Below, in pieces: positions 3,201 to 37,111 of a stretch of 64,000 nt of DNA. The DNA is from Craspedostauros australis (lineage: Eukaryota; Bacillariophyta; Bacillariophyceae; Mastogloiales; Achnanthaceae), in NCBI GenBank assembly GCA_026770025.1, contig JAMXDE010000006.1, forward strand, positions 2,734,001-2,798,000, given 5' to 3'. The notes beneath the pieces were generated by a model. It was not told the DNA's origin, made no database searches, and saw nothing but the letters and a program-made list of their open reading frames with translations. The position numbers and the translations under genes are program-made. Within the stretch, counting starts at the first letter, position 1; each line of letters starts with the position of its first letter.

Positions 3201-5778
3201 AGTGGACCGATGTGCCTCCTCATAGATAAATAGAGACCCGAATCATCAACACATGGTCATATTACGTCGCATCATAGTCTGATATTACACATTCCAGCTT
3301 TCATTCCGCTCTGAATGTGTGAGTCCACTGTATCTCAACAACTTAGAGTGGTGTCTCGTCGCTGTTGTTGTCGCCATTGTCAATCGTGACTTCTGCTCTT
3401 GGGTATTGTTTTCCACGGTGTGATCGTTCTTTTCTCTCCAAAGATACTTTTTGGCGCGAAGATCTGTGAATGAAGAAGACTGACTCGATCGACTCTGATG
3501 ATAACCTCCCCACTCTTCGCATGGTTCTGGGAGTAGATCATAGACAGAGAGACAGAATCTGAGTAAAACGAGGTACGAACAGCTTGTGCTTGAACATACA
3601 TCACGGTACTCTCCACACGTCTGAGGCATTGCTGTCGCCACACGGTCAATGCTTGTTGGTGATGACTGCCATACTGGCCGATGGTAACCATTTGGATGAG
3701 ACACAGTTGGGGAATGGCGGCCAGTGGCAATCACACAGAGATGGACAAATGCCGACCGTTTTTGTTTTCTTTTTCTTCTTTGCACCTTTCTTTGGTGTTG
3801 CTGTCACCCTCGGCTCGAGACACGGACCACCTAGATTTTCGACGACGCAACTTTGCAAACTTCCGCCATTCTTCATGGGAAGATCACACCAGAATCGATA
3901 CCGACACCAATACCAACATCGACATCGATATCGACATCAATATTACCGGCGATGACAACACCAGCAGCGACACCACAAGAATGCAGTAGTCACAATGGTG
4001 CTTTTGTTGATGGTCTGATGTGGATGGATGGGCGACGGGGTGCGATTGCACCAGTCATCACATGTTGACACATCATCTACGACCACCACGAAGTTACGCA
4101 ACAGGGCCAAGGCCAACAAAACAGGCGTACTCTGCTCCTCTGGTTGTCATTCGCAACAACCTCCTGGATGTCAGGGTTACCACCGTCAAACATGCTTCCC
4201 ACTACTCGGAGGTGAGCGTCCAAGATTGCCAAGTAAATTGACTGGCAACTGGCAGGCGGCAGATGACCATACTCGATAAGATGCCGAAGAGTAGTGGCGA
4301 ATTGAGGTCAGGTTGGAGCATCATCGAGTATTCACACGTCATCATCATCAAGACTACATATGACTTTGTCTGAAGGCAATAGATTCGAAGAAGACGGGAG
4401 AGGAAATCACCGTACTCGCAGTATCGCTGAGCCGCAGTATCGGCTGCATGATAATTGGAATCAAAGATACGCGGTGTGTCAAGACTACGATGCTGCTTCG
4501 AGCTGAACGGCGGCAAGAAACCACGAGTGACCAATCGATGGTTGGCTCCAACGACAGTACCGAAACAAGAGCACTGACTAGTGGTCATCATGCCAGCAGT
4601 GTGCGTTCTGTTGCAATACAGACCGCAAGCTGACCTGGACAGGTGCACTGCGCCAGTCAGTGCTGACCAAGTGTGTGTGGCACATCAAGTCAGATGCTCC
4701 ACCGTTTCACTATTCTGCACGGCGCATCCGTGGTATCAGCGGAAGTTGGAAGGAATCGAGAGTGAACCAGCGCAACTCGTCTATCCACTGAACTAACTGC
4801 AAGTCGTCTCTGACCTCTATTTGCTGACCTGCCGTCCAGATCGAGGTGTGATTCTCATCATGGGCGATGGAGACGTATGCACTTGGTGCGTATGCCGGTT
4901 GTTCACGAAGGCTCAATGGGCGTTGAAAAGAACGACACTGCGCAGCAATGGGCACTCGTGTCAACGAAAGGCAAATCCTTCAGCAAAAGATACGGCATGG
5001 TGTACAGGTCGTGTTCCACTTTCAATGAATCTTCCTTGCTTCGACATGCGAGTGAACACAATGAGTACACAGCACGCTGTGTGCACGGTAGACGTCTGCT
5101 TCAAACAAACAACCAATGTCTGCATTCCACTCAGACTCAACGAATACCCATCACACCTTTCTGGACTAATGTAGCCACCTTTCACCATTCATCTTTCGCT
5201 ATTCACTGATCGTGCTTTGTGCCTTCTCCATTCATTTCCCGTTCTCGTCCCTGATCCAAACAGAAATGAGACAACGCTTCCCACAGAAAAAAATCACGAA
5301 TTTGTCTGTGCTGACCAGTGGCGCGATCTGGTGCGGTTGAATGAATGACTGGATGGGAGATTGATCCAACGAATGAGGAGATCGTCCTCCGCCGCGCTCT
5401 CTGCACGAAAGCGGCGAGTGTCTTCTGTTCGCGGCACTTTGCTCGCTCTCTTTGTGCGGGTACGGGTACTGGTGTGAGTACGTGTGCGCGTGGAGCACCG
5501 TACTCGGTTGCCAGCAATGACACCCAAACGCACACGCACACGAATCGTACTGGTCAGCATGGTGATTTGCACTGGTTTGATGAGACAGACATATTTGTTT
5601 CTTTTGTTCCGGTCTGAGCTTTGCGCATCGACCAACAGATCCATCCCCACAGGTCATAACATGCTCTTCCTTCAACCACAACATTGCTCACATTCCGGTT
5701 CACGCGAGTTGCTTTTGCAGCGCAGACAAAAGGCCTCTGTCGGCAACAGCGCGACAGTGCAGCAAGACAGTAAACACA
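3201..5778. other. Intergenic stretch, no gene supported
   Basis: Several open frames of 60-170 codons exist on both strands, but none shows a recognisable domain or consistent splice structure. A short cgacatcaatac-type low-complexity run lies at about 3895-3950. I see nothing else that can be named. Confidence 0.5.
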
Positions 5779-5826
5779 TTGCAACAACAGCAGCAGCAAC
5801 AACTACAGCAGCAACAACTACAACAA
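5779..5826 (+). repeat. CAA/CAG trinucleotide run
   Basis: This imperfect (CAA/CAG)n tract lies directly before the first ATG of the DUF6824 gene, in the same frame (poly-Gln if translated). It may be 5' leader, or coding if an upstream exon exists. Confidence 0.6.
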
Positions 5827-7119
5827 ATGAACTTCGAATCACCTTCGTCGACGAATGTGCCGCCCAACTCACCGCATGCAAAACGAAGGAAGCAGAGCCA
5901 CCGCCATGATGAGGAGAACAGTTCTGGAACGGCATCACATGCACCGGAAGAATTGGATGGAGAGGAAGCGACAACGGGGTTACTGTCGCCATCCTCACTG
6001 CCACTACCCCTGCCACTTCCGTCTCTGCCATCGCCACCCTCTTCATCACCTCAGTCAACTGCGTCCACCTCATCGGCTCCGCCAACGACGTCCACGGGAT
6101 CATCGTTACGACGCTCTACGCGCAAGAGACCCGCGAAGTCAACACATCCACCGATGGATGAGAACACGTCTGCATCGCAGAAGTCAAGCCAACGCCTCCG
6201 TCGAAATCAATCGAGTGACGAAACAAGTGGATCATCGACAAAATGGCCGACGCCACCACAGTCTCTTCGGACGCGATCGATGACAGCCATACAGGGGATG
6301 CGTATTGTGCGAGCGTCGATACCACGAGCCTCATTCCCAGCGACATCGCTGACAATACCAGCATTGCCGAAGAAAAAGTCCTCAAATTCGGCATCGTTGT
6401 CATCTCCAAAACCATCGTCATCCTCAAAATCGTCAACACAAGCTGGAGCAAAGGCATCATCGTCAGCACCTGCATCACCACCCTTGGCATCAATCCCATC
6501 GACGGCGTCAGATGAGTTATCATCCTTGACGAATCTGAAGCAAATGAAAGAGCTCGACGAGAATTTCCAGCCCGGAGCCGGCGATGTCATCTGTGGTCGA
6601 GGCAAGATCATCCGTCAGCACATTGGCAACCAAAAATTCCGTACCATCATCCATGAGATTGCATCGTCACGATATAGCAGTACCATCGGCAGATCGGAAA
6701 AGAGCACTCTCATCTCGCAGATCGTGCAGTCCGTTCGCGAAGCAAGTCCCAACGGTGGCTTCGTCAAGTGCATCGACCACCGTTGGTACGAAGTGGGGGA
6801 TTATTTGGCTCGCGAAAAGGTCGGCCAGTGCTTGCGAGATCTGTTGCATCGTCAGTACCGCTCGTCGACGAAATCCAAGAGGAAGAAACGCCTCAAGTCC
6901 ACATCCGATTTTCTTGACGAATTTGAAGCCTTGGTGTTGAAGAATGGATACATCAAGCAGCGGCTGGATGAGTTATCGCAGTTCGCCTTGACGCGTGGGA
7001 AGGAGATGGAGCCTGAAGATCTGCTGCAGCACATGACATTGGCGAATGGAGATGTGTTGTGTGCCATCAAGAAAGACGAGGAGCTGAGCAAGTTGGCGAT
7101 CGAAATGACTGAGTCATGA
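5827..7119 (+). CDS. DUF6824-domain protein (diatom-expanded family), copy 1
   Basis: The protein is about 430 aa from the first in-frame ATG (5827). The open frame continues upstream through a Gln run without an ATG. Residues 1-235 are low complexity, rich in Ser, Pro and Lys, with basic clusters (AKRRK, RKRPAK). Residues about 252-345 carry the conserved domain: DVICGRGK, HIGNQKFR, then RSEKSTLI, NGGFVKC, RWYEVGD, AREKVGQCLRD and a basic tail YRSSTKSKRKKR. DUF6824 proteins are numerous in diatoms. Their role is unproven, and a nuclear, DNA-linked role is only a guess from the basic composition. A homologue lies at 11.8-12.5 kb on the other strand. The domain call is strong; the start is uncertain. 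Confidence 0.85.
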   Translation: MNFESPSSTNVPPNSPHAKRRKQSHRHDEENSSGTASHAPEELDGEEATTGLLSPSSLPLPLPLPSLPSPPSSSPQSTASTSSAPPTTSTGSSLRRSTRKRPAKSTHPPMDENTSASQKSSQRLRRNQSSDETSGSSTKWPTPPQSLRTRSMTAIQGMRIVRASIPRASFPATSLTIPALPKKKSSNSASLSSPKPSSSSKSSTQAGAKASSSAPASPPLASIPSTASDELSSLTNLKQMKELDENFQPGAGDVICGRGKIIRQHIGNQKFRTIIHEIASSRYSSTIGRSEKSTLISQIVQSVREASPNGGFVKCIDHRWYEVGDYLAREKVGQCLRDLLHRQYRSSTKSKRKKRLKSTSDFLDEFEALVLKNGYIKQRLDELSQFALTRGKEMEPEDLLQHMTLANGDVLCAIKKDEELSKLAIEMTES

Positions 7120-8530: not shown

Positions 8531-11202
8531 TCGGCAGCTCATGCCTCGGCATCCTTGGCAGCTGGTATCCAACGGCAGAATGGTGTCGGCGCATTCCCAT
8601 CACTGTCAACCTTCCAGCCTTGCCGCGGGATCTTCGAATCCACAGGCGCGTGGCTGACAGCGTATTGGCACGAGTAGAGGCTGATCAAGGATTCTTCGGA
8701 GAAGTAAAGGCTCTCCTCCGACTCGCTCAAGTCGCTGGGCGGATCTTGCGACAGGCTCTGCTGCAGCTGGAGCTGTGCACCGATGTGCGATTCCACCGAT
8801 GTCTCTGTGATGACCGGTGAGTCCGTGCCATCCGCGTGCTCGGACCCATGCATGGCGGGATGATCATCGTCGTAGTAATCGATGGGATGGCCGAACTGGT
8901 GCCCCGGATCCTGGCTGACGAGCGATACTTTGTGGATTCGGATCGCCACCTTGCCCTGCAGGATGTACTTTTCGTATGACAGCAGCTTGATGAGACTGTT
9001 GAGACCGATGTCGCTGGATCTGTTGCTGTTCCTCAGCTTCGGCGCCATGGTCGCCGTGATGAAGTGTTCGCCGTCGGAAACCAACAGGATCTGTGTATTT
9101 GTTGACGTTTTGGTAATCGGAGTGTGTGAGAATGAGAGTTGGAGTCCATCATGTATCATGTATCATGCATTGGGTGTTGTATGGAGTGGAGTGCCCGCAG
9201 GTAGAGTGCAACTCAAAGCAATCACGACGGCGGCAGTAGTAGCAGCAGCAGCAGCAACAACAACGACGATGACACAATCCACGCATGCAACAGCGACATG
9301 AGCAGCAACGCCGACTCACTTGCAGCTTCCTCTTCTTGCGACGCTCCAGCGATGCTGATGGACCCGTGGACATGTAGGTTGGCGTGGCGTCCGTGATGAC
9401 CGTCTCGCAACGGATGACCTGCAGCAGCGGACGGAAGGGGTACTGCCGGGGGTTCTCATCGTCTTCATCATCTAGGTCCATGATCTTCCTCACACCGTCT
9501 TGGGTCAGGAGCTTGCTGGAGAAGATTCGGCATTCCACCTTCTTGCGATTGAGCTGCTTGCAACTGAGCGTGTAGACGAATTGCTGACCGCAGGCGACCT
9601 CTCGTTTGGAGTACAGCTGCCCGTTCGCCAGCCCGGGTATTCTGTAGTAGATGCCGTTGGCATTGGCATGTCCCGCCCCTTCCACGAGGATGCGTTCCAC
9701 GGTCGGTCCTCGACATGAAAGCGTCCAGACCCTGTCTTGCGACGCCTTGAGCGCCTGCTGGGTGATGGCGGCCGTGATGAGGTCGGGAGCGATCCATTGG
9801 CTCTTGAGGACCGCACCCAGCAGGTCCTGCGGTTCGATCCATTCCAGAGTGATCTCAGCAGCACAGGCCCTCGCGACCTCGACGACATCCTCATGCGATG
9901 GGTCGGGCTGTGCCTCGACCCACTGCTGCAGCATCTGGAACAGGAACCACTCGCCAGCCTGGACGTGCTTCGAGGAGAAGAGGCCGTGGAGACGTTCGGC
10001 CGACAGCTGCGCAACACCTCCATCCGTCTCCCCGCACGGTGGCAGCGCGGCGTAGGGACGGCAGTACAACAGGAGCATCGCCTCTTGTCCGACGGCCGAG
10101 TGATCCACATCCTCCACTTGATCGTACACGACGCAGGCCAACGGCGGGTACCTCGATGCGAGGTCATGCGTCAGCCGCGTCACCAGCCGAGCGAGCTCTG
10201 TCAATTCCAAGAAGTCCGCCGCCTGCACCAGCTGCACAAGACGTCTGGCCGAAGCGGCGTTGCGTCCCAAGCCCACTCGGAAGGTGGAGATCTCGTGCGA
10301 GCCGCACCATTCCACGACGGCCTCCAGCACTGCGTGCTCGTACGGCAAGGAGATGATGGTTTGCTTCGATTCCTGGAAGGATCCGTAGAGCATTCGCTTG
10401 AACACCGGCGACCGTGCTCCCAGCAGGAATCGGTTGGCCAGGACCAAGGAATCGTCGGATCCTTGCAGGGTGAGGTCGGTGAGCTCATCATCCTGCAGCG
10501 CCCGGATGAGGTCCTGGAGCACTCTGTGATGGTACTGGTTGTCCAGAGATCCGCCTGAGGGAGTAATGCCGACCATGGTGCCCACTATTGGATGAATGGT
10601 GTGGCTGTTGTTGGTGGTGGTGTCTGTTTGCGTCTACTCGTGCGTGTGCGCTCTGGTTTCCAGCACCAAAGTCAACCCCAACCCTCTGTCCTCTGTCCTC
10701 TGTCCTCTGCCTGCGACCAACTCTCTGCACCACCTCAAGTCAGCAAGGGCATTCTGGTCACTGGCATTCCGATCAATGAAGAGGGGAAGCGCTTGCACTT
10801 GTGCACGTGTCGAATGCTTGCCTCAAGACTATACTTTGGGTATCGCGATGCTGATGTTACTGTTGTTGCTCTTGTTGTGTCGTTGTTATTGATCCTTCGC
10901 CTACCGTTGCGAAAGTTCCTGATGGTTGTGGATGGTGCACAGAAAACTTCATTGTGGGTGCATCCCACAATGACAGGCGATGGCTGCCGTGTGTGTTTTG
11001 GTTCGGAACTTGATTTCTCCACTTTTGATCCGATTGCTTTTGTGATTCGTTTGTGTGTGTGTCAGTGAGTCGTTTGTGTTTCGTTTGTGTGTGTGTTCTT
11101 CACATTGCCTCTCTTCTGTTTGCGCGTGGGGGACCAATGGCACGGGTTGTTCCCATCCATTTCTCCGATGGAGTGTCGCAAGACTCGTGCCGATAACGTC
11201 TA
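8531..11202. repeat. 2,672-bp duplicated block, copy 1 (direct repeat of 34440-37111)
   Basis: From 8531 to 11202 the sequence matches 34440-37111 in the same orientation with a constant offset of 25,909. I found no mismatch in the stretches compared, and conceptual translations in several frames on both strands are identical. The match stops abruptly at both ends. One border is 8 bp past the BTB gene's stop codon; the other is about 620 bp upstream of its ATG. The block thus carries one whole gene with intron and probable promoter. No target-site duplication or terminal repeat is visible at the borders. Confidence 0.95.
8539..10576 (-). CDS. BTB/POZ-BACK protein fused to an RPA1N-like OB fold, copy 1 (2 exons)
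   Basis: Exon 1 is 10576-9320 and exon 2 is 9090-8539. The 229-bp intron has donor CAA|gtgagt and acceptor acacag|ATC, both phase 0, giving 602 aa. Residues about 27-125 form a BTB fold (LTDLTLQG, LLGARSPVFKRML, ISLPYEHAVLEAVVEWC). About 190-275 are BACK-like, helical. About 283-345 carry a VEGAG...NGIYYR module seen in diatom BTB proteins. The intron lies inside the next domain: exon 1 ends FRPLLQVIRCETV...KRKLQ and exon 2 continues ILLVSDGEHFITATMAPKL, then VAIRIHKVSLV and GHPID. This order matches the N-terminal domain of replication protein A 70 (LQV-I, LLxSDG, MLAxxLN, IGNP). BTB-BACK proteins often act as CUL3 adaptors. A substrate-recruiting role through an RPA1N-like fold is inference. 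The rest is an acidic Ser-rich tail. Confidence 0.8.
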
Positions 11203-11778: not shown

Positions 11779-12537
11779 TTACAGCCCAGCCTTTTTGATG
11801 ACATCGTGACCTTCCGATTGGAGGGGCTCATCCTTCTTGATGGCTTCTAAGATCTTGGTGTTCGAATTTGTGAAGTCTTTCTCAGAGCCAGTCTTGGCCT
11901 TGCTGCTCAGATCCTCCATGCTTTCCTTGATGTCATGATTGCGGGACAGTATCTCCACGAGATTCTCTTCCATCTTCCCGAGAGACTCCAATCGTTTCTG
12001 TCGCTTGGATTTCGATGACGATCGGTATCGATTGCTCAACGAATCGCGGAGATACTGACCGACCTTCTCACGGGCGATCGAATCACCGACCTCGTGCCAT
12101 CTACCACCCTGATGTTTGATGAAACCACCGAATGGACTGCCCTTGCGAATCTCGTTCACGATGGCCATGACAATCTTGCTCTTGTGGGATCGATTGGTGG
12201 CATTGGAGTAGTCCTCGACGGATTTCTTAATCCGTTTGCGGAAGTTCAGGTTGCCGATATGGTTCCTAGCTTCCTTCCCGATCCCGCAAATCACGTCGAA
12301 CGGGCCCGGCGTGAAGCTCGTTGCTAGAGGTTTCATCCGCTCCATCAGTCTTGGTGCAGTGTTCCCCAATGTCTTCATCGAAGCAACATCGACTCCCTGC
12401 TTTCCCGCCTGCCTAAGCGGCGATGCCGATGAAGGGGATGTCTGACTTACTGTGTGTGTAGTGGCTTGCGGCGTTTGATTATCGGTGGCTTCTCCCTTCT
12501 CGCATGTGGAGGAAGCTTTGGGTGATGCATCGCTCAT
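11779..12537 (-). CDS. DUF6824-domain protein, copy 2
   Basis: The protein is about 252 aa from the ATG at 12537 (MSDASPKASS). The frame is open further upstream to about 13005, so a longer start cannot be excluded, but that extension looks like untranslated sequence. Residues about 80-175 form the DUF6824 domain: FDVICGIGKEARNHIGN, then RSHKSKIVMAIV, GGFIKHQGGRWHEVGD, AREKVGQYLRD and the basic tail YRSSSKSKRQKRL. The C-terminal part shares with copy 1 a short helical region and the signature ILEAIKKDE / VLCAIKKDE. The two genes, on opposite strands either side of the BTB gene, are diverged paralogues. Function unknown. Confidence 0.85.
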   Translation of the reverse strand: MSDASPKASSTCEKGEATDNQTPQATTHTVSQTSPSSASPLRQAGKQGVDVASMKTLGNTAPRLMERMKPLATSFTPGPFDVICGIGKEARNHIGNLNFRKRIKKSVEDYSNATNRSHKSKIVMAIVNEIRKGSPFGGFIKHQGGRWHEVGDSIAREKVGQYLRDSLSNRYRSSSKSKRQKRLESLGKMEENLVEILSRNHDIKESMEDLSSKAKTGSEKDFTNSNTKILEAIKKDEPLQSEGHDVIKKAGL

Positions 12538-14610
12538 GATGGTCAATGCTGGGATCTGTTGGACACAATGAAACGCAACAGCTGGAGACGGCTGATTTGG
12601 CTCAATCAGTGTAGCTGACTGCTGCATCGGATCTTCTGGATTGTTTGCTCTCTTGGTCTGGAAATCGGTCGGATGGAGACTTGCGATGCCGTGGCAACTG
12701 TTTCTGATTTGCGGCAGCCGTTGCGTTCCCACGAGGGTGGCCTTGAATGCTGATTGTATTCTGGCTTGTAGCTTTCTCTGGTTCACCGATACTGACAATC
12801 GTAGTGATTTACTGATCGTGCTCACAGAGATGTTACGGATGATGATGTTCGTGTTGTAGGTGTCGATGGTGTTGTCAATGTGAGCGTAATGGACGTGATG
12901 AGTGCAATGTGTGCTGGCGAATACTGTGAGCAGGTCAAGGCGCGACGGTTTGGATTTGGTTGCCACTGTGCTTGCTGTTTGAGCGCAAACGATTCCTCGC
13001 CCCACCTCGCTCTGTTGTCACCTTCACGCTGGCGCCAATGACTGAGTAAACGATGTGGGCTGAGGTTGCTGCGGCGTTCGCCGTCAACGGTGTCAACGAA
13101 GAGACCAATAAATAGCGCAACGTAGGTATGGATACGAATACGAATACAATTACGAGTAGAGTTGAGTAGAGTAGAGTAGAGCAGAGTTGAGTATAGTGTG
13201 GCATTTACTCTACTCTATTGTTCTTTGGCTGACTTTTGTTGCTGGTGCATTTGACCCGTCGTCACAGCTGTCGTCGATGGGTGATCCACGACTCTTTGTG
13301 TTCTACTGGTCCAGGTCACTGCTTTTGCCTCCTTGTGGGAGAAGCAGTCGCGACGCGCTCGGCAATTATGTCTGGCGCTGGAAATACTGGCGACATCGCT
13401 GTCAACGTCGTGGTACGGTCATTGTGAACAAATTCGAATAAGCTGGTCCCAACGAAGCACCAACAAGCGGCAACACAATGGTGTCATCGCACAATCCAAG
13501 CGCCTGAATGGTCGTCTCGGACCGAGTCTATTGACTTTAGAATGGCATGGCTATGCGAATCACTCCAGGGTTGTCCGCAGACCAATCGCGTCTCAATTGC
13601 ACAACAGCGCAATCTGCTCTTTGTACCCACGATGGGACTCTACGAACAACGAGGTACGAGCTATCCTACGAAGCCACTGATTGTGCAATGCAGTCTCGCG
13701 CTGTCGCGAGGTGGATAGGGGGAGAGAAGCACGTCGCAATCACGAGGAACTACTCTGCGCGAGTTGTTGGGACACTGGCATATCTCGTATTCTATTAATT
13801 TTGCGATCAAGTAAACTACTCTCCTCCACTTTACTCTTTGCTTCAAAATCGCAGTGTGCTTCCTGTGACACTCCTTGTCTGTCGTGAGTGTTCACGATAG
13901 AGTAACCGTTTTGGGGCTCTGATCATGACAGTCATACGGACACATGTAGAGTCCAACAGCATCCGGAGGGGGTTCTTCTTCGTTCCCAGTTCGGTCGCAG
14001 TTGGGTCGCAGTTCGGTCGCAGTTGACATCCTGGTCCGTCTCAACTTCACTGGTGCAAGGTTTGAGGGCTTCACCCTGGTATGAATAGCTCGTACTTGCC
14101 CATCACGAGTAGAGCGGAGCAGAGTGTTCGGTGGTTATTTCATTGTTGTTCGAAGATTAGATGCTTTTGTCGGTCCGTCGCTTGGTCGAAATCACTTGAG
14201 ATGCACAATGGTTGATTCATTCGACACCCTTGATTACACACAAAACGAATCTTCGTGGCAAGGCGTCGAAATGTGAAGCCGATCGAGCACCAAAAAGATA
14301 CCAGCAACGTGGGCATCAGTCACAATCGCGAAGAAATACACTTGCGCAACCGCAGAAGCTACTTGTTGCTTCGTCAACACAAGATCCAAGTGTCGCAGAG
14401 GGAGGGTGCGCGACAAAGATGCCACCGCAACCCACATCCGAAGCAGAATGAATCCTGTTCCATCTAAATGACCGGCTGCTGGCATTGCTTCAATGGCAAG
14501 GCGATGAGCTGCTGGCGCCAGCAAAGACCAGCTGAGAGCTCGACAATCCTCGCGCCGTGGATGCAACAGAAACAGTCGTGACACTCTTGCCACCACTCAC
14601 TCAGTCTGCA
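12538..14610. other. Intergenic / 5' region, no gene firmly supported
   Basis: It contains the upstream region of the second DUF6824 gene. A gagta-rich microsatellite lies at about 13147-13195, next to a complementary tactctactcta at about 13206, so a hairpin is possible. No coding region with a recognisable domain was seen. Confidence 0.4.
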
Positions 14611-17026: not shown

Positions 17027-20000
17027 TCATTGGCTCTCTCCGCGTGCCTCGCTTTCCACTACGCTCCTCCGCTCGCTGGCTGCTCTGGCCGCGCTCCGCG
17101 CTGCCTGCACATGCCTCACCCATCGGCGCTGGTCGTCCACGGGCCACCTTGCGAGTTCGTTCCGTGTAACATTCGCTAGCAGCCCACGATCCGCCGCCAT
17201 AATGTCTGCATCCCTCATCTCCCACTGCTGATTCACCATCCTGCACACTGCTACCGTCTCAGCTGCTTCGCGCTTGCGCCCTTCCCGGTCATGTAGCACC
17301 CTGTTTCGCGCCTCCCAGGCTTTCCATCGCACGTCCCACAGTCCTGCGACTGCCGCTCCCATCCAGTTTGCCGGTTTCATGGGCCTTGCCTCGATCTCCA
17401 TTCGAGCTGACTGAACCTGTCGCCACCTCTTGGACCACCTCCCTCTCGTCATCATCCCCCACCCGATCGCCTGCTGATCGTTAACGGCCTCTTGGACCAC
17501 TCGCTGTGCTCTTGGCTCCGGCTCCTCCTTATTGCACCAGCTCCTGATTTGGCGCACCATTTCACTCACCATGCCCACATCTCCTCCGGACTGCAGCATG
17601 TTGTCCTTCCATTCGGAAAGCGCAGCTTCCCTCACTGCCATTGCTGCGGGGTGCCGGCACTGCAATATATGCTCTATCGTCTCTTCTTCGTCGCGACAAA
17701 TCGGGCACTCGCTGCTCGCCCAGAACCCCCACTTCGCCATATTACGCCCCACTGGCCCGAACCCTGCGGCATGCTTCACCACCCATCGTTTTCGCGCACT
17801 GCCTATGCGCCCCATAGCTGCCTGAACCGACTCCACGTCGATGCGCTCGATCACCTCCGCCGACATCTTCTTGGTTTTGCGCTGCCACGCCCACGTCTTC
17901 GCACTCTGGACATGGCGCCGAAGTTCAGTCTTCACACCTCGACACACTTTACATGACCGAAGCCACACCGACCACTCATCATCTCTCCACTCGCCGTCTG
18001 TGCTGCTCTTGTGGCTTTTCTGCTCCATTCCAGCCAGGCGATCAACGTCGTCATTCCAGTAGGCAAACTCGTCTCTCGCGACGCCACGATCGCGCTCCAG
18101 CTGGTGACCATACACATGTCGATACTCGAGTTTTGCTGGTATCGTCCTTGTCACCTGTCGTATCGCCCTCAAGAGGTCGAAGTGCTGGACTCCTATGTGT
18201 ACATCGCGATCGTATTCCACGGCATGGATGCCGGCCATGCGGTTGTCGCAGGCGACCACAACTGTCGCCGCAGAAGCACCACACTCTGTGCCGGATTCCC
18301 GAAGCATTCTGTCAGCCACCACCAGGGCTTGGTATATGCCACCTAGCTCTGCTCGGTACGCGCTTTGTATTGCTTGTCTTCCTTGCACCGGCCCCGCCAT
18401 CTGTAAACATCCATCACGTTGCCCTCGCACGTTCAACGAGAAAGCCGCCGTGCTCCTGCCGTCCTTAAACGACCCATCGGTGCTGATAACAGCTCTACCT
18501 TCTCGTGCTGCCTGGACCCACTTCTCTGCGGCTTCCCCGAACTCCGACCTCACGGCCCCGCTCGGTTGTCTCCACCATCTGCCCACTCCCACCACGTATA
18601 CCTGTTCATCCCGTTGTCGGAGCCATACTTGGCGTCCCTGCGTTGCTGCCAGTTCTGTGGGTTGCCCTTGGCGCCAGAATCCCTGTAATCCTGGGTCGTC
18701 GCCAGCTCGTGCCGCCCACTTCTGCCAACGACCCCCGCTCTCCCTGGTCCACACTGCGCTTGTGCGCACCTCCCATAGAGCTTCCGGTGGCGCCACCATT
18801 CGGCCGTCTGTCGAGAGCTGTCTTCGAACTCTGCGTATCGCTCGCCCCCACAACCTCCAGTCTTGGTCCGGTATTGGTCCTTGCCGCGGCCAAGCTATGC
18901 TAGCTCGTCCTCGCCATCGGCCGCGTGCCGTCTCTGGAGGGAGCTCTACTTCCGCGCACGCCACGTCCCCAGTCGTCATCACCTGCATTTTTACCCTGCA
19001 TCGATTCAGACGCTCCAGTTGCGCTCTTGTGTACCCTGCTCCGCGCAGCGCCGGCATCAGCCATTCCTCCTTCTCCCACGCTCGAATGGTAGTTGGCGTC
19101 CTCTCCCGCAAGTCGATGCCGTACTCTTGGACCTCTCTCCACACTGTTTTGATCCAACATTCCGTCGCCAGAAACGACCATGCCTTGTAGCTCGTATTGA
19201 AGAGAGAATCGCCGATGCCGATCTCCGTTTTCATCGCTTCGATCGTCCCTCGAATGAGTTTGCCTGTAACCGTGCTCCTTTCGCCATGCTCCAGCACCAT
19301 GCATACATGCTCCACGACCTGCGTCGTGTGTAACTCATGCACATCGGCCCCGAGCAACGCACTTGGCGCGTGGATCATAGCCCTCGGGAAGCCTTTGTTG
19401 TAGCCGAGCTTGGACATCGTCGCCGCCCACACAGGCTTCATTGTCTGCCTCGCTTCAGCTTCGCTAAGTTGCGCCACCGGCAGAACGTACTCCAGCTTCT
19501 TCAGCAGTATGCTCCGAATCGCCGCGTCTGCGTCCTGCTTCCTTACTCGCTTCGTTCTGACCTTCTCTGCCCAATTCTTGGCTTTGTCTTGTATAGCTTC
19601 GACAATAGCTGCGCCATTTCCATCTGGTGCCAGTCGCACTCCAAGAGTCTCGAATGCTTGGTGTCGAGCACTTTTCGGCATCTTCTGTCGGTGTCTATTG
19701 CTGCCTGCCATCCAGATCTCGTACGGCGTCTCCTCCTCACTCGCGTACCGCCACGTGCCATCCTCTCGCCACTTGAAGTCGATCGGCCACCACATGCTCT
19801 TCTCTACCACCAATGCTCCTCCCGTCGCTCTCACTAGCGCTTCCCACATATCCACGCTACTCTGCATTCTCTTTACGGCTTCTTTGATACCCTCGGTCCT
19901 CCTCGCGTTCACCACTAGGTCCGTATCGTCGACGAACGCATAGCCCACCATCTTCACTGGTTCCCCGCTGATCGCCGTCCTGAACTCTGCTGTGTGGTTC

Positions 20001-22744
20001 TCCTCCTTCATCACTTCGAGCATTGGTGACGATATCACCGCCCAGATCACCGGCCCTGCCCCATTGCCTTGGTAAATCCCTTGCATTGGCGCTATGCCCG
20101 GCTGATTCCGCAGTGTGTCCCTTGAGTCTCCATACGTCGTTCGTATGTGGTGTTCCAAGCTCTGTAGTGTTCGGAACATGCTCACCACCTCCGTGACTGC
20201 TACTCCTTGTCGCTGCAGACATATTGATGCTATCGAATGCACAATCCTGTCATAACAACTCTTCAAGTCGTTGGAGCAAAGGACCCCTGGTACTCGAGTC
20301 TGTCGAAGCCAATCAAATGTCAATTGCTTGTTAAGCGCATGGTCGATGGCACGGTGTCCTTTGCGGCTCCCGTACTGTTCTTCCGCGAATCCTTCTTGCG
20401 CTTCCGCTTGTTGTGCCGCCTTCCTGCCCACCGCTTTATTCGCAAAATTGAAATCTGCTTCGAACAGGACGATCGTGCGGAGTTTATCGACGCGGTAGCT
20501 GTTTGCTTTCTTCATCAACTCCACGTCGACGCCGTACTTCCACCGTTCATACGAATATCCCGACTTCATAGCTACCGACGTCATGCTCGCTTCGAACTCT
20601 GAATTCGCTCGGTGCATCGCTGTTGCTTTGAAGTGGCCGAAGTGGAGCCCGGATGGACCGGCCGAGGTATCTTCCTTGCATTTCCGCCACCCCGATTGGT
20701 ACTCATCGGTTGTCATTCCTGCCTGTATCGTTTTACGGCTCTTCGACTTCAGCCCTCCGATGAGCCTCCGAGCACCTTCCTCGATCCATGCCGGCACGTG
20801 ATATCTGCCTTGTAGCGTTTGTTTGGCAGCCTCTGACACTCCCAGGTACCCATATTCCTGTGCTAGAAACCCCTGCATGAACGGTGTCCGCTCTGTCTGT
20901 CGGAATCTTCTTCGGTTCTCTTCCATGCAGCCTCTCTCAATGTCTTCTCTTCTTGTGCACTCCTTCCATTCCCCGTTACGATCTGGCGCTATCACCATCG
21001 ATATACCTCCCGCTCCGTTGGCCCCTGTTGTTCTTCGTATCCTCGCATACATCTGCTTGACTTGTTCCCTTCGTCGCATCTGTAAGAGCTGACTCGACAT
21101 CCTCTTCCCCATCCCTGTCTGTCTTCGTTGTCTTCGCCCTGGCTTACCGTTCCCTTGCTGCTTGTTTTCCGCTTCGGCTTTGGCGGCTTCTTCTCTTGCT
21201 CTTGCTGCTGCCACCCTTTCTATCCAGTTCGCTCTCGCGTCCGTTGCTTTGCGTCGAAACCTTTTCAACGCTTGGAATGCCTCCTCCTGTTCTTTGGCTA
21301 CCTCTTTGTGCCTCATCCGGCTAATCTCTGATACCTTCCTTGCTTCGCCTGCTCTTTTTGCTAGCCGTTGTACGAGCCTTGATGACACTTTCCTCCCAGC
21401 TGCCCGCCTCGCCACATTGTTCCAGAGCCCTATCCGTGCTTCGATGGCTTTGTACTCCCTTGAATACGGGATACCTCCCATGCGCAGCTTCCGGCATTGC
21501 TTGTCCGCCTTCCATATGCCTTCCACTCGTATTGCGTCCAACCTTTCGGCCTCTCGCTCCATCTGAGCATTCCACTCGCTTTCTGCCTTCCGTTCCAACC
21601 GTATCGCTCGATTCCTTGCATTGTGTTGTCGTAGGTGCTGCTCGTAGCTATCGTTGAATTTTTTCACGATTCGAGGGTCTTCAGTTTTCACTCTTCTTGC
21701 GACTGATCGGCGCAGAGGTGGCATACGCTGGCCCAGGACCTCTTGCATGTTGACTTCGAGCCATATGCATCTGTGATCCGCACTGCGCTCCTGTATCCCT
21801 TCATCCCATCTTGTCATCCCGGCCCTTGCCACTGTGATTGATTCGGTTGTAAATATGGCGTCGATTGGCGTCTTTCCCCATCGTTGTGTGGCGGTTCGTG
21901 CCGCGGCGCTGTTTCTCGTCCTCATTGCGTTCACCAACCCTGCTTCGCTTGCGAATGCTTGCATTGCTCTTGTGCCTGTGTCTTCGTTGCAATCCATCAT
22001 AAGTATCACATGCTCGCCTTCTCTTTTCCAGCTCGCTACTGCTTTGCCTAGGTCAGCCAGCATTCGCGCTCTTGGTTCTACGTCCTCACACTTTTCGTTG
22101 TAATACCGACGGTGCTGTGCGTACGTATTGAGTACTCCGCGCGTGCGAGGTCGACACGGTCGATAGGCTGTCACAACCCGCAATCTTTGGTGATTGGCCC
22201 CGCGATAGAGCTGCCATGCCCACCTCCCGAGTTTGGTTGGGTCTACTCCATCTTTTACCATCCTCACTGCTGCTTGGTGCCTGCTAATCATTGCAGTGCC
22301 TCCCCATTGCTTCCTGTTGTTTATGTCTTCGTTGCTGTTGTTGCTCGTCGTTGTTTGCGTGGTACCCGTCGGCCACCACTCTTTCACTCTATTTTTGAGT
22401 GTTGCTTCCTCCTCTACTCCTCTCCAATCGACGTTGACTTCTGTTATTCCGAACACGTCGAATTCTCCCTCGTTCATCCATTGTTTGAGGCTCTCATCCA
22501 CATTTCCTGGATGCCTCTTCAGTCCTCCGAAATTCTGCATTCCAATCCTCATTCGTCCCTCCTGTTTCCGTAGCAATACGTCGCCTACGTTTGCTTCTCG
22601 TCCTCCTCTTCCGTCTTCTGCCTGGTGCGGTAAACCTGGTGTGAAGGCGGGCGCATTCGGGCTCAGGCCTGTTGGTCGTGCTGCTTCCGACTCCTGGCCC
22701 TGCCCTTCCCCTTTAACCGTCTCCGGATGCCGCCGTAGCGCCAT
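17027..22744 (-). CDS. Non-LTR retrotransposon polyprotein: APE endonuclease, reverse transcriptase, RNase H, zinc finger
   Basis: This ORF has 1905 aa. An APE-type endonuclease spans residues about 65-330: QNFGGL (Asn), GITEVNV (Glu), LMMDCNED (Asp) and SADHR (Asp-His). A long basic, coiled region follows (350-600). The RT core has motif A SNDLKSCYD at about 824-832, motif B YQGNGAGP at about 891-898 and motif C AFVDDTD at about 936-942. RNase H (about 1418-1570) shows STDGSF, YRAELGG, VVACDN and a C-terminal WNDDVD. A CPIC...EHILQC zinc finger (about 1680-1696) follows. The enzyme would nick target DNA and copy the element RNA by target-primed reverse transcription. Its ATG overlaps the preceding ORF by 32 nt in another frame. 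All catalytic motifs are intact. Confidence 0.95.
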   Translation of the reverse strand: MALRRHPETVKGEGQGQESEAARPTGLSPNAPAFTPGLPHQAEDGRGGREANVGDVLLRKQEGRMRIGMQNFGGLKRHPGNVDESLKQWMNEGEFDVFGITEVNVDWRGVEEEATLKNRVKEWWPTGTTQTTTSNNSNEDINNRKQWGGTAMISRHQAAVRMVKDGVDPTKLGRWAWQLYRGANHQRLRVVTAYRPCRPRTRGVLNTYAQHRRYYNEKCEDVEPRARMLADLGKAVASWKREGEHVILMMDCNEDTGTRAMQAFASEAGLVNAMRTRNSAAARTATQRWGKTPIDAIFTTESITVARAGMTRWDEGIQERSADHRCIWLEVNMQEVLGQRMPPLRRSVARRVKTEDPRIVKKFNDSYEQHLRQHNARNRAIRLERKAESEWNAQMEREAERLDAIRVEGIWKADKQCRKLRMGGIPYSREYKAIEARIGLWNNVARRAAGRKVSSRLVQRLAKRAGEARKVSEISRMRHKEVAKEQEEAFQALKRFRRKATDARANWIERVAAARAREEAAKAEAENKQQGNGKPGRRQRRQTGMGKRMSSQLLQMRRREQVKQMYARIRRTTGANGAGGISMVIAPDRNGEWKECTRREDIERGCMEENRRRFRQTERTPFMQGFLAQEYGYLGVSEAAKQTLQGRYHVPAWIEEGARRLIGGLKSKSRKTIQAGMTTDEYQSGWRKCKEDTSAGPSGLHFGHFKATAMHRANSEFEASMTSVAMKSGYSYERWKYGVDVELMKKANSYRVDKLRTIVLFEADFNFANKAVGRKAAQQAEAQEGFAEEQYGSRKGHRAIDHALNKQLTFDWLRQTRVPGVLCSNDLKSCYDRIVHSIASICLQRQGVAVTEVVSMFRTLQSLEHHIRTTYGDSRDTLRNQPGIAPMQGIYQGNGAGPVIWAVISSPMLEVMKEENHTAEFRTAISGEPVKMVGYAFVDDTDLVVNARRTEGIKEAVKRMQSSVDMWEALVRATGGALVVEKSMWWPIDFKWREDGTWRYASEEETPYEIWMAGSNRHRQKMPKSARHQAFETLGVRLAPDGNGAAIVEAIQDKAKNWAEKVRTKRVRKQDADAAIRSILLKKLEYVLPVAQLSEAEARQTMKPVWAATMSKLGYNKGFPRAMIHAPSALLGADVHELHTTQVVEHVCMVLEHGERSTVTGKLIRGTIEAMKTEIGIGDSLFNTSYKAWSFLATECWIKTVWREVQEYGIDLRERTPTTIRAWEKEEWLMPALRGAGYTRAQLERLNRCRVKMQVMTTGDVACAEVELPPETARGRWRGRASIAWPRQGPIPDQDWRLWGRAIRRVRRQLSTDGRMVAPPEALWEVRTSAVWTRESGGRWQKWAARAGDDPGLQGFWRQGQPTELAATQGRQVWLRQRDEQVYVVGVGRWWRQPSGAVRSEFGEAAEKWVQAAREGRAVISTDGSFKDGRSTAAFSLNVRGQRDGCLQMAGPVQGRQAIQSAYRAELGGIYQALVVADRMLRESGTECGASAATVVVACDNRMAGIHAVEYDRDVHIGVQHFDLLRAIRQVTRTIPAKLEYRHVYGHQLERDRGVARDEFAYWNDDVDRLAGMEQKSHKSSTDGEWRDDEWSVWLRSCKVCRGVKTELRRHVQSAKTWAWQRKTKKMSAEVIERIDVESVQAAMGRIGSARKRWVVKHAAGFGPVGRNMAKWGFWASSECPICRDEEETIEHILQCRHPAAMAVREAALSEWKDNMLQSGGDVGMVSEMVRQIRSWCNKEEPEPRAQRVVQEAVNDQQAIGWGMMTRGRWSKRWRQVQSARMEIEARPMKPANWMGAAVAGLWDVRWKAWEARNRVLHDREGRKREAAETVAVCRMVNQQWEMRDADIMAADRGLLANVTRNELARWPVDDQRRWVRHVQAARSAARAASERRSVVESEARGESQ

Positions 22745-24185
22745 CCGTTACATTTGGTGTGCGACCTGGAAGTGGGCTGTCAACCTTTCCTTCGCTGGTT
22801 CTCTCGCGCTGGGCGTCCTTTGGCGTTATGCCTCGCCCTTCCGTGCTCTCCCCCTCTTTTTCTTTGAGCTTCCGATTTTCCTCTGCCGTTGCCTCCAACC
22901 GTGCTTGCATTGCTTCCATCTGTGCTTTCATCTCTACTACTAGTGCTCTCGTCGTCCCTGATGTCTTCTTTGTGCTTCCCGATAGCGTTGACATAGTTGA
23001 TTTCTGTGTTCTGTTCTCCATCAACTCCGCCAGTTGTTCCTCCAAGTGTGCGATCTTCTGTCTCTGCGTGCCTGTTGTCCGTTTGCTATTGTTTGTGAGT
23101 GTGGATGTGGTGGATCCTTCGCCTTGAAGTTCTTTGTCTCTTGCTGCCTGCCTGTTGGCTTCGCCTCTCGCACTGATGGTTTTCCATGCTTGGTGGTTTC
23201 GCAGCGACGGGATGGTGTCGTTATCCCCGTAGTCCTTTTCTGGTCTCGCGTCGCAGTCTCTGCTTTCTTGTGCTACTCCCTCCTCCATGTCGATCTCCAC
23301 CTTTCGTGCGAAGTGCATGTCTTCGTCGGCAGCCATCACGGCTTCCACTGCTTCATCTCGTTCTGAAATCACCCGCTTGGTTGCTTCGTCCCACTTCATC
23401 GTCTTTGCTTCGCCTCGCGCAAGTGTTGTGAACAGTGACCTCACTGTCTCGCCGTATTTCGCCTCTAGTGTCACCAACAGCCCTTTCACCGTCATGCGTG
23501 CTTCCATCTCTTTGTGTGGATGAAATTGAAACACATACCCTGCCCCTCTCCACTGCTTGCTCACTGATGCGAACAGTGGGGTATTCACGTTCCCCGTGGT
23601 GGATTTGAGCTTCATGATCATCTGGCGCAGTGTGTTGCCTGTTCCGTCTGGCACCGTGTCCAGGGTCTCTTGGATGATGTCGTGTGATGTGATCGATTTT
23701 GCCTCTTCGCACCAGCCGGCGTGGCGCTCTCTTAGCGCAAACCACCCTTGCCGCATGTCTGTGTTCACAATGCCTGAGAGTGGTGTTACCAACCTCATCC
23801 TGATTCCCAGTGGAAATTTCGTCGATTTCGCACCATAGTACGTCTCCATCACTTTCATCACCACTTCCTTGTCGGCTGTAGCGGTCTCAATGTGTAGTGC
23901 CCTCGGGTCTCTCTCCATTTTCCGGTTGGGGTCGTACTTTGCCCCGTCAGAGATGCGTTTCCAGTTCGCTGCCACCTGTCGTTGTGTTAGTCGAGTGAGC
24001 TCCGCCTCCAGCTCGTCTTCGCTGAGCTGTCTGGTTGAGTACATCATCCATCCGATGGTGGTGGTTGATGCGGCTTGAATCTTTGCCACAGTGAACCTTC
24101 CGCTGTCTCTTGAGAAGAAGTCTCTTAGCTCCTCTGTGATCCTTGTGATTGGGTTCTCGCATTCGATCCTCACCTTCAGGAACAT
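22713..24185 (-). CDS. Non-LTR element middle ORF (gag-like / ORF1-type protein)
   Basis: This ORF has 490 aa. The N-terminal part contains FPLGIRMRLVTPLSGIVNTD and further conserved-looking blocks, as in accessory ORFs of stramenopile non-LTR elements. The C-terminal third is a coiled coil (QKIAHLEEQLAELMEN; VVEMKAQMEAMQARLEATAEENRKL), suggesting self-association as in other ORF1 nucleic-acid chaperones. Its ATG overlaps the stop of the preceding ORF by 10 nt (ATGTTCCTGA). Its own end overlaps the polyprotein start by 32 nt. The role as RNA-binding particle protein is inferred from position and the coiled coil. Confidence 0.75.
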   Translation of the reverse strand: MFLKVRIECENPITRITEELRDFFSRDSGRFTVAKIQAASTTTIGWMMYSTRQLSEDELEAELTRLTQRQVAANWKRISDGAKYDPNRKMERDPRALHIETATADKEVVMKVMETYYGAKSTKFPLGIRMRLVTPLSGIVNTDMRQGWFALRERHAGWCEEAKSITSHDIIQETLDTVPDGTGNTLRQMIMKLKSTTGNVNTPLFASVSKQWRGAGYVFQFHPHKEMEARMTVKGLLVTLEAKYGETVRSLFTTLARGEAKTMKWDEATKRVISERDEAVEAVMAADEDMHFARKVEIDMEEGVAQESRDCDARPEKDYGDNDTIPSLRNHQAWKTISARGEANRQAARDKELQGEGSTTSTLTNNSKRTTGTQRQKIAHLEEQLAELMENRTQKSTMSTLSGSTKKTSGTTRALVVEMKAQMEAMQARLEATAEENRKLKEKEGESTEGRGITPKDAQRERTSEGKVDSPLPGRTPNVTDGATAASGDG

Positions 24186-34439: not shown

Positions 34440-37111
34440 TCGGCAGCTCATGCCTCGGCATCCTTGGCAGCTGGTATCCAACGGCAGAATGGTGTCGGCG
34501 CATTCCCATCACTGTCAACCTTCCAGCCTTGCCGCGGGATCTTCGAATCCACAGGCGCGTGGCTGACAGCGTATTGGCACGAGTAGAGGCTGATCAAGGA
34601 TTCTTCGGAGAAGTAAAGGCTCTCCTCCGACTCGCTCAAGTCGCTGGGCGGATCTTGCGACAGGCTCTGCTGCAGCTGGAGCTGTGCACCGATGTGCGAT
34701 TCCACCGATGTCTCTGTGATGACCGGTGAGTCCGTGCCATCCGCGTGCTCGGACCCATGCATGGCGGGATGATCATCGTCGTAGTAATCGATGGGATGGC
34801 CGAACTGGTGCCCCGGATCCTGGCTGACGAGCGATACTTTGTGGATTCGGATCGCCACCTTGCCCTGCAGGATGTACTTTTCGTATGACAGCAGCTTGAT
34901 GAGACTGTTGAGACCGATGTCGCTGGATCTGTTGCTGTTCCTCAGCTTCGGCGCCATGGTCGCCGTGATGAAGTGTTCGCCGTCGGAAACCAACAGGATC
35001 TGTGTATTTGTTGACGTTTTGGTAATCGGAGTGTGTGAGAATGAGAGTTGGAGTCCATCATGTATCATGTATCATGCATTGGGTGTTGTATGGAGTGGAG
35101 TGCCCGCAGGTAGAGTGCAACTCAAAGCAATCACGACGGCGGCAGTAGTAGCAGCAGCAGCAGCAACAACAACGACGATGACACAATCCACGCATGCAAC
35201 AGCGACATGAGCAGCAACGCCGACTCACTTGCAGCTTCCTCTTCTTGCGACGCTCCAGCGATGCTGATGGACCCGTGGACATGTAGGTTGGCGTGGCGTC
35301 CGTGATGACCGTCTCGCAACGGATGACCTGCAGCAGCGGACGGAAGGGGTACTGCCGGGGGTTCTCATCGTCTTCATCATCTAGGTCCATGATCTTCCTC
35401 ACACCGTCTTGGGTCAGGAGCTTGCTGGAGAAGATTCGGCATTCCACCTTCTTGCGATTGAGCTGCTTGCAACTGAGCGTGTAGACGAATTGCTGACCGC
35501 AGGCGACCTCTCGTTTGGAGTACAGCTGCCCGTTCGCCAGCCCGGGTATTCTGTAGTAGATGCCGTTGGCATTGGCATGTCCCGCCCCTTCCACGAGGAT
35601 GCGTTCCACGGTCGGTCCTCGACATGAAAGCGTCCAGACCCTGTCTTGCGACGCCTTGAGCGCCTGCTGGGTGATGGCGGCCGTGATGAGGTCGGGAGCG
35701 ATCCATTGGCTCTTGAGGACCGCACCCAGCAGGTCCTGCGGTTCGATCCATTCCAGAGTGATCTCAGCAGCACAGGCCCTCGCGACCTCGACGACATCCT
35801 CATGCGATGGGTCGGGCTGTGCCTCGACCCACTGCTGCAGCATCTGGAACAGGAACCACTCGCCAGCCTGGACGTGCTTCGAGGAGAAGAGGCCGTGGAG
35901 ACGTTCGGCCGACAGCTGCGCAACACCTCCATCCGTCTCCCCGCACGGTGGCAGCGCGGCGTAGGGACGGCAGTACAACAGGAGCATCGCCTCTTGTCCG
36001 ACGGCCGAGTGATCCACATCCTCCACTTGATCGTACACGACGCAGGCCAACGGCGGGTACCTCGATGCGAGGTCATGCGTCAGCCGCGTCACCAGCCGAG
36101 CGAGCTCTGTCAATTCCAAGAAGTCCGCCGCCTGCACCAGCTGCACAAGACGTCTGGCCGAAGCGGCGTTGCGTCCCAAGCCCACTCGGAAGGTGGAGAT
36201 CTCGTGCGAGCCGCACCATTCCACGACGGCCTCCAGCACTGCGTGCTCGTACGGCAAGGAGATGATGGTTTGCTTCGATTCCTGGAAGGATCCGTAGAGC
36301 ATTCGCTTGAACACCGGCGACCGTGCTCCCAGCAGGAATCGGTTGGCCAGGACCAAGGAATCGTCGGATCCTTGCAGGGTGAGGTCGGTGAGCTCATCAT
36401 CCTGCAGCGCCCGGATGAGGTCCTGGAGCACTCTGTGATGGTACTGGTTGTCCAGAGATCCGCCTGAGGGAGTAATGCCGACCATGGTGCCCACTATTGG
36501 ATGAATGGTGTGGCTGTTGTTGGTGGTGGTGTCTGTTTGCGTCTACTCGTGCGTGTGCGCTCTGGTTTCCAGCACCAAAGTCAACCCCAACCCTCTGTCC
36601 TCTGTCCTCTGTCCTCTGCCTGCGACCAACTCTCTGCACCACCTCAAGTCAGCAAGGGCATTCTGGTCACTGGCATTCCGATCAATGAAGAGGGGAAGCG
36701 CTTGCACTTGTGCACGTGTCGAATGCTTGCCTCAAGACTATACTTTGGGTATCGCGATGCTGATGTTACTGTTGTTGCTCTTGTTGTGTCGTTGTTATTG
36801 ATCCTTCGCCTACCGTTGCGAAAGTTCCTGATGGTTGTGGATGGTGCACAGAAAACTTCATTGTGGGTGCATCCCACAATGACAGGCGATGGCTGCCGTG
36901 TGTGTTTTGGTTCGGAACTTGATTTCTCCACTTTTGATCCGATTGCTTTTGTGATTCGTTTGTGTGTGTGTCAGTGAGTCGTTTGTGTTTCGTTTGTGTG
37001 TGTGTTCTTCACATTGCCTCTCTTCTGTTTGCGCGTGGGGGACCAATGGCACGGGTTGTTCCCATCCATTTCTCCGATGGAGTGTCGCAAGACTCGTGCC
37101 GATAACGTCTA
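34440..37111. repeat. 2,672-bp duplicated block, copy 2
   Basis: Direct repeat of 8531-11202 with no difference found. Flanking sequences differ completely from those of copy 1. The mariner-like element begins about 320 bp to the right. Confidence 0.95.
34448..36485 (-). CDS. BTB/POZ-BACK protein fused to an RPA1N-like OB fold, copy 2 (2 exons)
   Basis: Exons are 36485-35229 and 34999-34448, with the 229-bp intron 35228-35000. The predicted 602-aa protein is identical to that of copy 1, as are the intron and about 620 bp upstream, so both copies may be expressed. Domains: BTB about 27-125, BACK-like about 190-275, NGIYYR module about 283-345, RPA1N-like fold about 381-489 (interrupted by the intron), acidic Ser-rich tail to 602. 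The 3' border of the duplicated block lies only 8 bp after the stop, so the 3' UTR and polyadenylation context differ between the copies. This copy sits among transposons, whereas copy 1 lies between DUF6824 genes, so copy 1 is the more likely parent (inference). Confidence 0.8.

What the first reader, a model, noticed from the sequence alone, without database searches (positions are those of the whole stretch)
8539..10576. BTB-BACK protein fused to an RPA1N-like OB fold
Splicing exon 1 (ends KRKLQ) to exon 2 (starts ILLVSDGEHF) in phase 0 rebuilds the order LQVI...LLVSDG...MAPKL...GHPID. That is the pattern of the protein-interaction domain at the N terminus of replication protein A 70. BTB-BACK proteins usually carry Kelch or MATH substrate domains; I know of no BTB-RPA1N architecture. 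It could tie CUL3-type ubiquitin ligation to DNA replication or repair factors. The intron cuts through the OB fold, so automatic gene models may miss it.
Basis: partly seen in the sequence, partly recalled or inferred. Interest (0 to 1): 0.72.

Follow-up and report, generated by a model that had tools for sequence, protein, structure and literature searches.

The report
BTB protein carrying RPA1-like N-terminal domain
A gene in a eukaryotic genome appears to join a ubiquitin-ligase adaptor domain to a relative of the protein-docking domain of the DNA-repair protein RPA; the usual docking groove looks changed, so its target is unknown.

Summary
Joining 10576-9320 to 9090-8539 (minus strand) gives a 602-residue protein. 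This junction scores best of 737 GT-AG introns against an RPA1N profile; codon signal is present in both exons and negative in the intron's forward frames. The protein has BTB above Pfam's cut-off, BACK below it, an unassigned segment, then an RPA1N-like domain (about 357-490) matching the N domain of the same genome's RPA1 end to end (blastp E 3e-11; Pfam Rep-A_N 25.2 bits, cut-off 26.7). A CUL3-type cullin is present, so a CUL3-adaptor role is plausible; binding is not shown. Against a simple RPA mimic: 2 of 6 basic and 2 of 7 hydrophobic cleft positions keep their type, versus 4 of 6 and 7 of 7 in own RPA1; small numbers. Seven literature searches showed no BTB-RPA1N protein in their listings. 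Other protist genomes could not be searched. Verdict: real, unusual domain combination; mechanism open.

The parts
9320..10576 (-). exon 1 (coding part), residues 1-419
   Evidence: translation; coding signal +0.338 bits/codon; ATG at 10576 is the first in-frame ATG of the open frame
10175..10495 (-). BTB/POZ domain, residues 28-134
   Evidence: Pfam BTB 1.4e-8, 35.3 bits vs cut-off 20.5; same stretch 38.9 bits in the genome-wide BTB search
10370..10378 (-). FQE, residues 67-69, candidate CUL3-contact motif (hydrophobic-x-E)
   Evidence: position; aligned opposite LRE of KEAP1 (E 0.019); that this is the contact motif is recalled; motif name and contact loop seen in passages of PMC3616122
9869..10009 (-). 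BACK-like stretch, residues 190-236
   Evidence: Pfam BACK 0.0096, 16.4 bits, below cut-off 20.9
9527..9706 (-). unassigned segment, residues about 291-350, with VEGAGHANANGIYYR; a similar stretch (DHDDANGYYIR) in the BTB paralog L007
   Evidence: alignment; no Pfam match; a fragment from here matches just the two copies in this genome
9320..9508 (-). RPA1N-like domain, first part (residues 357-419), ending in an inserted loop with ERRKKRK
   Evidence: Pfam Rep-A_N; blastp E 3e-11 to own RPA1
9091..9319 (-). intron, GTGAGT...ACACAG, phase 0, 229 nt
8539..9090 (-). exon 2 (coding part), residues 420-602 and stop
   Evidence: coding signal +0.324 bits/codon
8878..9090 (-). RPA1N-like domain, second part (residues 420-490)
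   Evidence: coding signal +0.44 bits/codon
8674..8733 (-). acidic and hydrophobic tail stretch, residues 539-558 (DLSESEESLYFSEESLISLY)
   Evidence: position; likeness to acidic-amphipathic RPA70N ligands is inference from PMC10479964 passages
34440..37110 (.). second copy of 8531-11201, identical over 2,671 bases, same orientation, intron kept; its gene on -: exon 1 35229-36485, intron 35000-35228, exon 2 34448-34999

Best explanation
This is a two-exon gene for a BTB-BACK-type adaptor whose C-terminal half holds a domain that shares ancestry with the N-terminal domain of RPA1 (RPA1N). Most likely the BTB domain self-associates and docks on the genome's CUL3-type cullin, and the RPA1N-derived OB domain serves as the substrate- or partner-binding module, in the place where kelch or MATH domains serve in other adaptors. 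The core signature is kept but the classical acidic-peptide cleft is changed, so the partner is probably not the standard set of RPA clients. Shown by sequence: gene structure, BTB homology, RPA1N homology, presence of a CUL3-type cullin. Inferred: the OB fold itself, dimerisation, CUL3 binding, and use of the OB domain as substrate receptor.
For: BTB above cut-off. The named splice ranks 1 of 737, with coding signal on both sides and none in the intron. The domain matches the same genome's RPA1 N domain with 32 of 134 identical, E 3e-11. Pfam Rep-A_N 1.7e-5 for the domain alone, the one family listed. Real domain 27.2 bits against a best of 7.8 in 5,000 shuffles (own + human profile), and 29.4 against 7.2 with own RPA1 alone. 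BLAST of the whole protein against the genome lists 7 matches: the two exons of both copies, two BTB paralogs, and RPA1 at query 350-504 (E 0.034). CUL3-type cullin L042: best solved match human Cullin-3, 474 bits, against 386 for the next class, Cullin-4B. FQE lies opposite LRE of KEAP1.
Against: No RNA, protein or binding data. BACK and Rep-A_N are below Pfam's curated cut-offs. Human RPA70N as sole query does not put the real domain among the three best of 5,001. A search of solved structures with a 113-residue domain fragment lists 3 weak hits up to E 10, none an RPA. The model of exon 1 alone is unusable (mean pLDDT 34.8), so no fold is shown. No relative outside this genome was found with exon 1, but those collections hold viral contigs and bacterial and archaeal genomes; exon 2 was not searched there.
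Confidence: 0.5

Rival explanations
1. The RPA1N-derived domain works as an RPA mimic: it binds the same acidic-amphipathic motifs of repair and checkpoint proteins as RPA1 and presents them to CUL3 for ubiquitination.
For: Full-length homology to RPA1N; two basic cleft positions remain lysine (R41 and R91 equivalents); a basic cluster ERRKKRK lies in the loop just before the exon junction.
Against: R31 to E, R43 to Q, R81 to S, K88 to Q; hydrophobic floor M57 to T, I83 to E, V93 to A, I95 to R, M97 to H. Mutation of R31, R41, R43 and R91 in human RPA70N reduced peptide binding (PMC10479964 passages). In this rival's favour: identity at cleft positions (2 of 15) is not significantly lower than elsewhere (22 of 80; Fisher p 0.34), similarity 8 of 15 against 48 of 80 (p 0.78), and the alignment near R41/R43 needs a one-residue gap.
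Confidence: 0.17
2. The protein targets RPA itself: the acidic tail (residues 539-558) docks on the basic cleft of the real RPA1 N domain, and the OB domain is a structural or regulatory part, perhaps closing on the tail in an off state.
For: The tail stretch is acidic and hydrophobic, like RPA70N ligands described in PMC10479964 (passages); own RPA1 keeps 4 of 6 basic and 7 of 7 hydrophobic cleft positions by type.
Against: Acidic disordered tails are common (recalled); this stretch was not tested against chance.
Confidence: 0.15
3. A BTB scaffold or transcription-type co-factor with no ubiquitin-ligase role; the OB domain is a protein-protein docking part only.
For: BACK is below the cut-off; many BTB proteins do not bind CUL3 (recalled).
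Against: Hydrophobic-x-E opposite that of KEAP1 and a CUL3-type cullin in the genome; both indirect.
Confidence: 0.13
4. Gene-model error: exon 2 belongs to another gene and the OB likeness is chance.
For: No RNA support available here; Rep-A_N is under the curated cut-off.
Against: The named junction is best of 737; exon 2 carries coding signal in the spliced frame; homology runs on both sides of the junction.
Confidence: 0.05

Closest known systems
BTB-BACK adaptors of CUL3 ligases (KLHL, KBTBD, SPOP-type)
   Same: N-terminal BTB (1.4e-8), BACK-like stretch after it (below cut-off), hydrophobic-x-E opposite that of KEAP1; CUL3-type cullin in the genome
   Different: No kelch, MATH or ankyrin family listed; the C-terminal module is RPA1N-like. 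Of 29 BTB open frames of this genome scanned, 12 match MATH, 3 ankyrin, 2 kelch, 1 RCC1
N-terminal OB domain of replication protein A 70 (RPA70N / Rep-A_N, PF04057)
   Same: End-to-end homology to the RPA1 N domain of the same genome, including the LTQDGVR start, LQ.I, SDG and final G.P
   Different: A 17-residue gap in the blastp alignment where the BTB protein has an extra loop, most cleft residues changed, sits at the C-terminal side of a BTB protein and not at the N terminus of RPA1
BTB paralog L007 of the same genome (C72:77718-78353)
   Same: 29% identical over query 20-225; a similar ...ANGYYIR... stretch further on
   Different: No Rep-A_N match up to E 1 in its 584-residue frame

Membership tests
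BTB/POZ proteins (PF00651) | BTB profile above the curated cut-off | tested here: met
   35.3 bits vs 20.5
BTB-BACK proteins | BACK profile above the curated cut-off | tested here: inconclusive
   16.4 bits vs 20.9, residues 190-236; an exon-by-exon BACK scan of the genome listed 1 place at E <= 0.001 of 100 candidates scored, while 12 of 29 BTB frames match BACK at E <= 0.01 when scanned as proteins
BTB-kelch or MATH-BTB adaptors | kelch or MATH substrate domain | tested here: not met
   not among the 4 families listed for the whole protein up to E 10 (HMMER's filters drop most matches above about 0.1)
CUL3-type ligase adaptors | binds CUL3 | not testable with these tools
   only indirect: FQE motif, CUL3-type cullin present
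RPA1N / Rep-A_N domain | homology over the whole domain to an RPA1 N domain | tested here: met
   blastp E 3e-11, residues 2-135 of 140 against 3-113 of 118
RPA1N / Rep-A_N domain | Pfam curated cut-off 26.7 bits | tested here: not met
   19.5 bits in the whole protein, 25.2 for the domain alone, 26.5 with the loop insertion left out as a diagnostic
RPA1N / Rep-A_N domain | basic, hydrophobic-floored ligand cleft | tested here: not met
   2 of 6 basic and 2 of 7 hydrophobic positions keep their type (3 of 7 if alanine counts); own RPA1 4 of 6 and 7 of 7
RPA1N / Rep-A_N domain | five-stranded OB fold | not tested
   spliced protein not sent to the fold tool because of its rule; exon 1 alone gave mean pLDDT 34.8
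Replication protein A large subunit (RPA1) | DNA-binding OB domains after the N domain | tested here: not met
   no further RPA family among the 4 listed for the 602-residue protein; the genome's RPA1 is at C28

The most novel reading that the evidence does not exclude
An RPA1 N domain was captured by a BTB adaptor and evolved a new ligand site, giving a CUL3 ligase that recognises replication or repair proteins through an RPA-derived receptor, possibly with the acidic tail linking it to RPA1 itself.
Probability: 0.25. Interest if true: 0.68.

Novelty: new variant of a known kind. Interest (0 to 1): 0.45.

Why it matters
The RPA1 N domain is a hub that binds more than 20 partner proteins (PMC10479964, start of abstract as shown in the listing). 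Finding it detached from RPA1 and placed in the substrate position of a ubiquitin-ligase adaptor would show that this docking domain can be reused, and would give a direct candidate for ubiquitin control of replication or repair. The intron that splits the domain may be why an exon-by-exon profile search of the genome did not list it; its sub-threshold score may be another reason.

Tried and rejected
Structure prediction of exon 1 alone: mean pLDDT 34.8, discarded. The spliced protein was not sent to the fold tool, because as I read its rule it admits only protein that the DNA gives letter for letter.

Relatives of exon 1 in viral contigs and in bacterial/archaeal genomes: none confirmed (0 of 6 and 0 of 22 pattern matches). 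Exon 2 was not searched there, and protist genomes are not held, so this says little.

Search of solved structures with the 113-residue domain fragment: 3 weak hits up to E 10, none an RPA. Human RPA70N alone does not find the domain above shuffles. The link rests on the same genome's RPA1 and on the Pfam profile.

A statistical contrast between cleft and other positions: not significant for identity (p 0.34) or similarity (p 0.78); loss of hydrophobic type against own RPA1, 2 of 7 versus 7 of 7, p 0.02, or 0.07 if alanine counts as kept (three comparisons plus a variant, no correction).

The idea that the second copy is a spliced retrocopy: rejected, because the intron is kept in both copies. 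The idea that the segment 291-350 is a known Pfam domain: no match listed.

Full report
What was checked. On the minus strand, 10576-9320 and 9090-8539 join in phase 0 across a 229-nt GTGAGT...ACACAG intron to a 602-residue protein; unspliced, the frame stops inside the intron. Two sequence tests support the splice. First, of 737 GT-AG introns enumerated in the region, the named one gives the best score to a profile made from the genome's own RPA1 N domain and a human stretch: 24.1 bits, next best 21.5, unspliced 16.3. Second, a codon model from 4,349 codons of six other open frames of the genome gives +0.338 bits per codon in exon 1 and +0.324 in exon 2 in the spliced frame, the best of six frames in each (best other frame +0.10 and +0.14), and negative values in all six frames of the intron. 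The training frames are stop-to-stop and may include non-coding ends. There is no RNA evidence.

Domains. Pfam lists four families for the whole protein up to E 10: BTB (35.3 bits, cut-off 20.5), Rep-A_N (19.5 vs 26.7), Skp1_POZ (16.7 vs 21.9, within the BTB stretch) and BACK (16.4 vs 20.9); kelch, MATH and ankyrin are not among them. Given the domain alone, Rep-A_N is the one family listed up to E 1, E 1.7e-5, 25.2 bits. Direct comparison with the N domain of the RPA1 gene of the same genome (C28; L008) aligns the whole domain from LTQDGVR to the final G-P, 32 of 134 identical, E 3e-11. The real domain scores 29.4 bits with own RPA1 as query against at most 7.2 in 5,000 shuffles, and 27.2 against 7.8 with the two-sequence profile; with human RPA70N alone it is not among the best three of 5,001. 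A search of solved structures with a 113-residue fragment listed no RPA. So the domain is homologous to RPA1N, recognisable here through the genome's own RPA1 and the Pfam profile, and diverged. That it came from the RPA1 of this lineage is inference.

Ligand site. PMC10479964 (12 of 32 passages shown) names residues by which human RPA70N holds its partners. In the alignment, counted, own RPA1 keeps 4 of 6 basic positions (R31 as K, R41, R43, R91) and 7 of 7 hydrophobic ones as hydrophobic. The BTB protein keeps 2 of 6 (R41 and R91 equivalents, as K) and 2 of 7 (V, L; 3 of 7 if alanine counts), with R31 to E, R43 to Q, I83 to E, I95 to R and M97 to H. The contrast in plain identity (2 of 15 cleft versus 22 of 80 other positions identical to own RPA1) is not significant (p 0.34), nor is similarity (8 of 15 versus 48 of 80, p 0.78). 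The loss of hydrophobic type against own RPA1 gives p 0.02, or 0.07 with alanine counted as kept, uncorrected. The alignment around R41/R43 depends on one gap. A basic loop ERRKKRK (411-417) is inserted just before the exon junction. That the named residues line a cleft in this protein presumes the OB fold, which was not modelled.

CUL3. The genome holds three large cullin open frames plus two partial matches, one of which (L046) adjoins L042 and is probably its first exon. L042 is closest to human Cullin-3 (474 bits, Cullin-4B 386); L043 scores best with Cullin-4A (367 bits, Cullin-3 352) and L044 with Cullin-4B (318). FQE (67-69) in the BTB domain lies opposite LRE of KEAP1 in the alignment; that this is the hydrophobic-x-E contact is recalled, and PMC3616122 passages place CUL3 contacts in the alpha3/beta4 loop among others and name the motif. 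Binding was not testable.

Genome context. The genome is of 74.8 Mb in 90 contigs and has introns and cullins, so it is a eukaryote. Two neighbours carry DUF6824, which I recall as common in diatoms; the species was not determined. A BTB profile search gave 146 matches at E <= 0.01 (150 of 172 candidates scored, a lower bound). Of 30 loci fetched, 29 were scanned at E <= 0.01 (L035, the identical copy, dropped): 12 match MATH, 12 BACK, 3 ankyrin, 2 kelch, 1 RCC1; 25 of 29 matched families were displayed. In that scan the present gene was represented by its unspliced first frame only, so the scan cannot say which other BTB genes carry a split RPA1N. The whole spliced protein finds in the genome itself (two copies, two exons each), two BTB paralogs and RPA1 (7 matches up to E 10). 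In the diatom Seminavis robusta, BTB/POZ families are among those that respond to sexual reproduction (PMC7335047 passages).

Duplication. The block 8531-11201 recurs at 34440-37110, same orientation, 2,671 bases without a difference; blastn's slightly longer match shows one gap near the end. It holds the whole coding region, the intron and 625 bases upstream, and ends 8 bases past the stop codon. It is a DNA-level copy, very recent or an assembly effect; both copies lie on the same contig. Being identical, it gives no evidence about selection.

Literature. Seven searches of the open full-text library showed no BTB-RPA1N protein in their listings. Terms were BTB with Rep-A_N (0 papers); with RPA70N (1 paper, whose 4 passages are all reference-list entries); with diatom and BACK domain (2 listed, not opened); with RPA1N and domain architecture; with replication protein A, fusion, N-terminal OB and domain; with CUL3, RPA70 and adaptor; and BTB-BACK with replication protein A. 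Two further searches on BTB served other points; their listings show none either, and of those papers I saw passages of PMC3616122 and PMC7335047 only. Subscription papers and domain-architecture databases were not searched, so the combination may be listed elsewhere.

Judgement. The feature is real as sequence and is an unusual domain combination. The mechanism (CUL3 adaptor with an RPA1N-derived receptor) is the most likely reading at about 0.5.

Noticed in passing
window 8531-11201 and 34440-37110: Exact 2,671-base duplication of the whole gene with its upstream region, 25.9 kb apart, same orientation; a protein search of the genome lists two copies.
   Followed up: partly
window 5584-7116 (+) and 11782-13017 (-): Two DUF6824 open frames (1.8e-20 and 1.5e-21) flank the first copy; domain of unknown function, recalled as common in diatoms.
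   Followed up: no
window 17030-25609 (-): Non-LTR-type retroelement: open frame of 1,906 codons with reverse transcriptase, endonuclease and zf-RVT matches, each somewhat below Pfam's cut-off, and two further open frames upstream without a Pfam match at E 0.001, lying between the two gene copies.
   Followed up: no
window 26312-32317: Inverted repeats of about 160 bases (94% alike) enclose about 6 kb with a 1,210-codon open frame whose best Pfam match is E 0.12; perhaps a DNA transposon.
   Followed up: no
window 47285-48499 and 50012-64000: Copia-type retrotransposon sequence (RVT_2 63 and 137 bits), the latter in near-identical direct repeats (50012-54367 with 57386-61741, 99.7%; 55160-57424 with 61736-64000, 97.8%).
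   Followed up: no
L041 (own genome C1:901566-901679): Weak Rep-A_N match (E 0.053, 19.4 bits, below cut-off, 38 positions) in a 3,108-codon open frame, a possible second RPA1N-like stretch outside RPA1.
   Followed up: no
L045 (own genome C9:403149-403742): Partial cullin match with one in-frame stop, perhaps a decayed or intron-split cullin.
   Followed up: no
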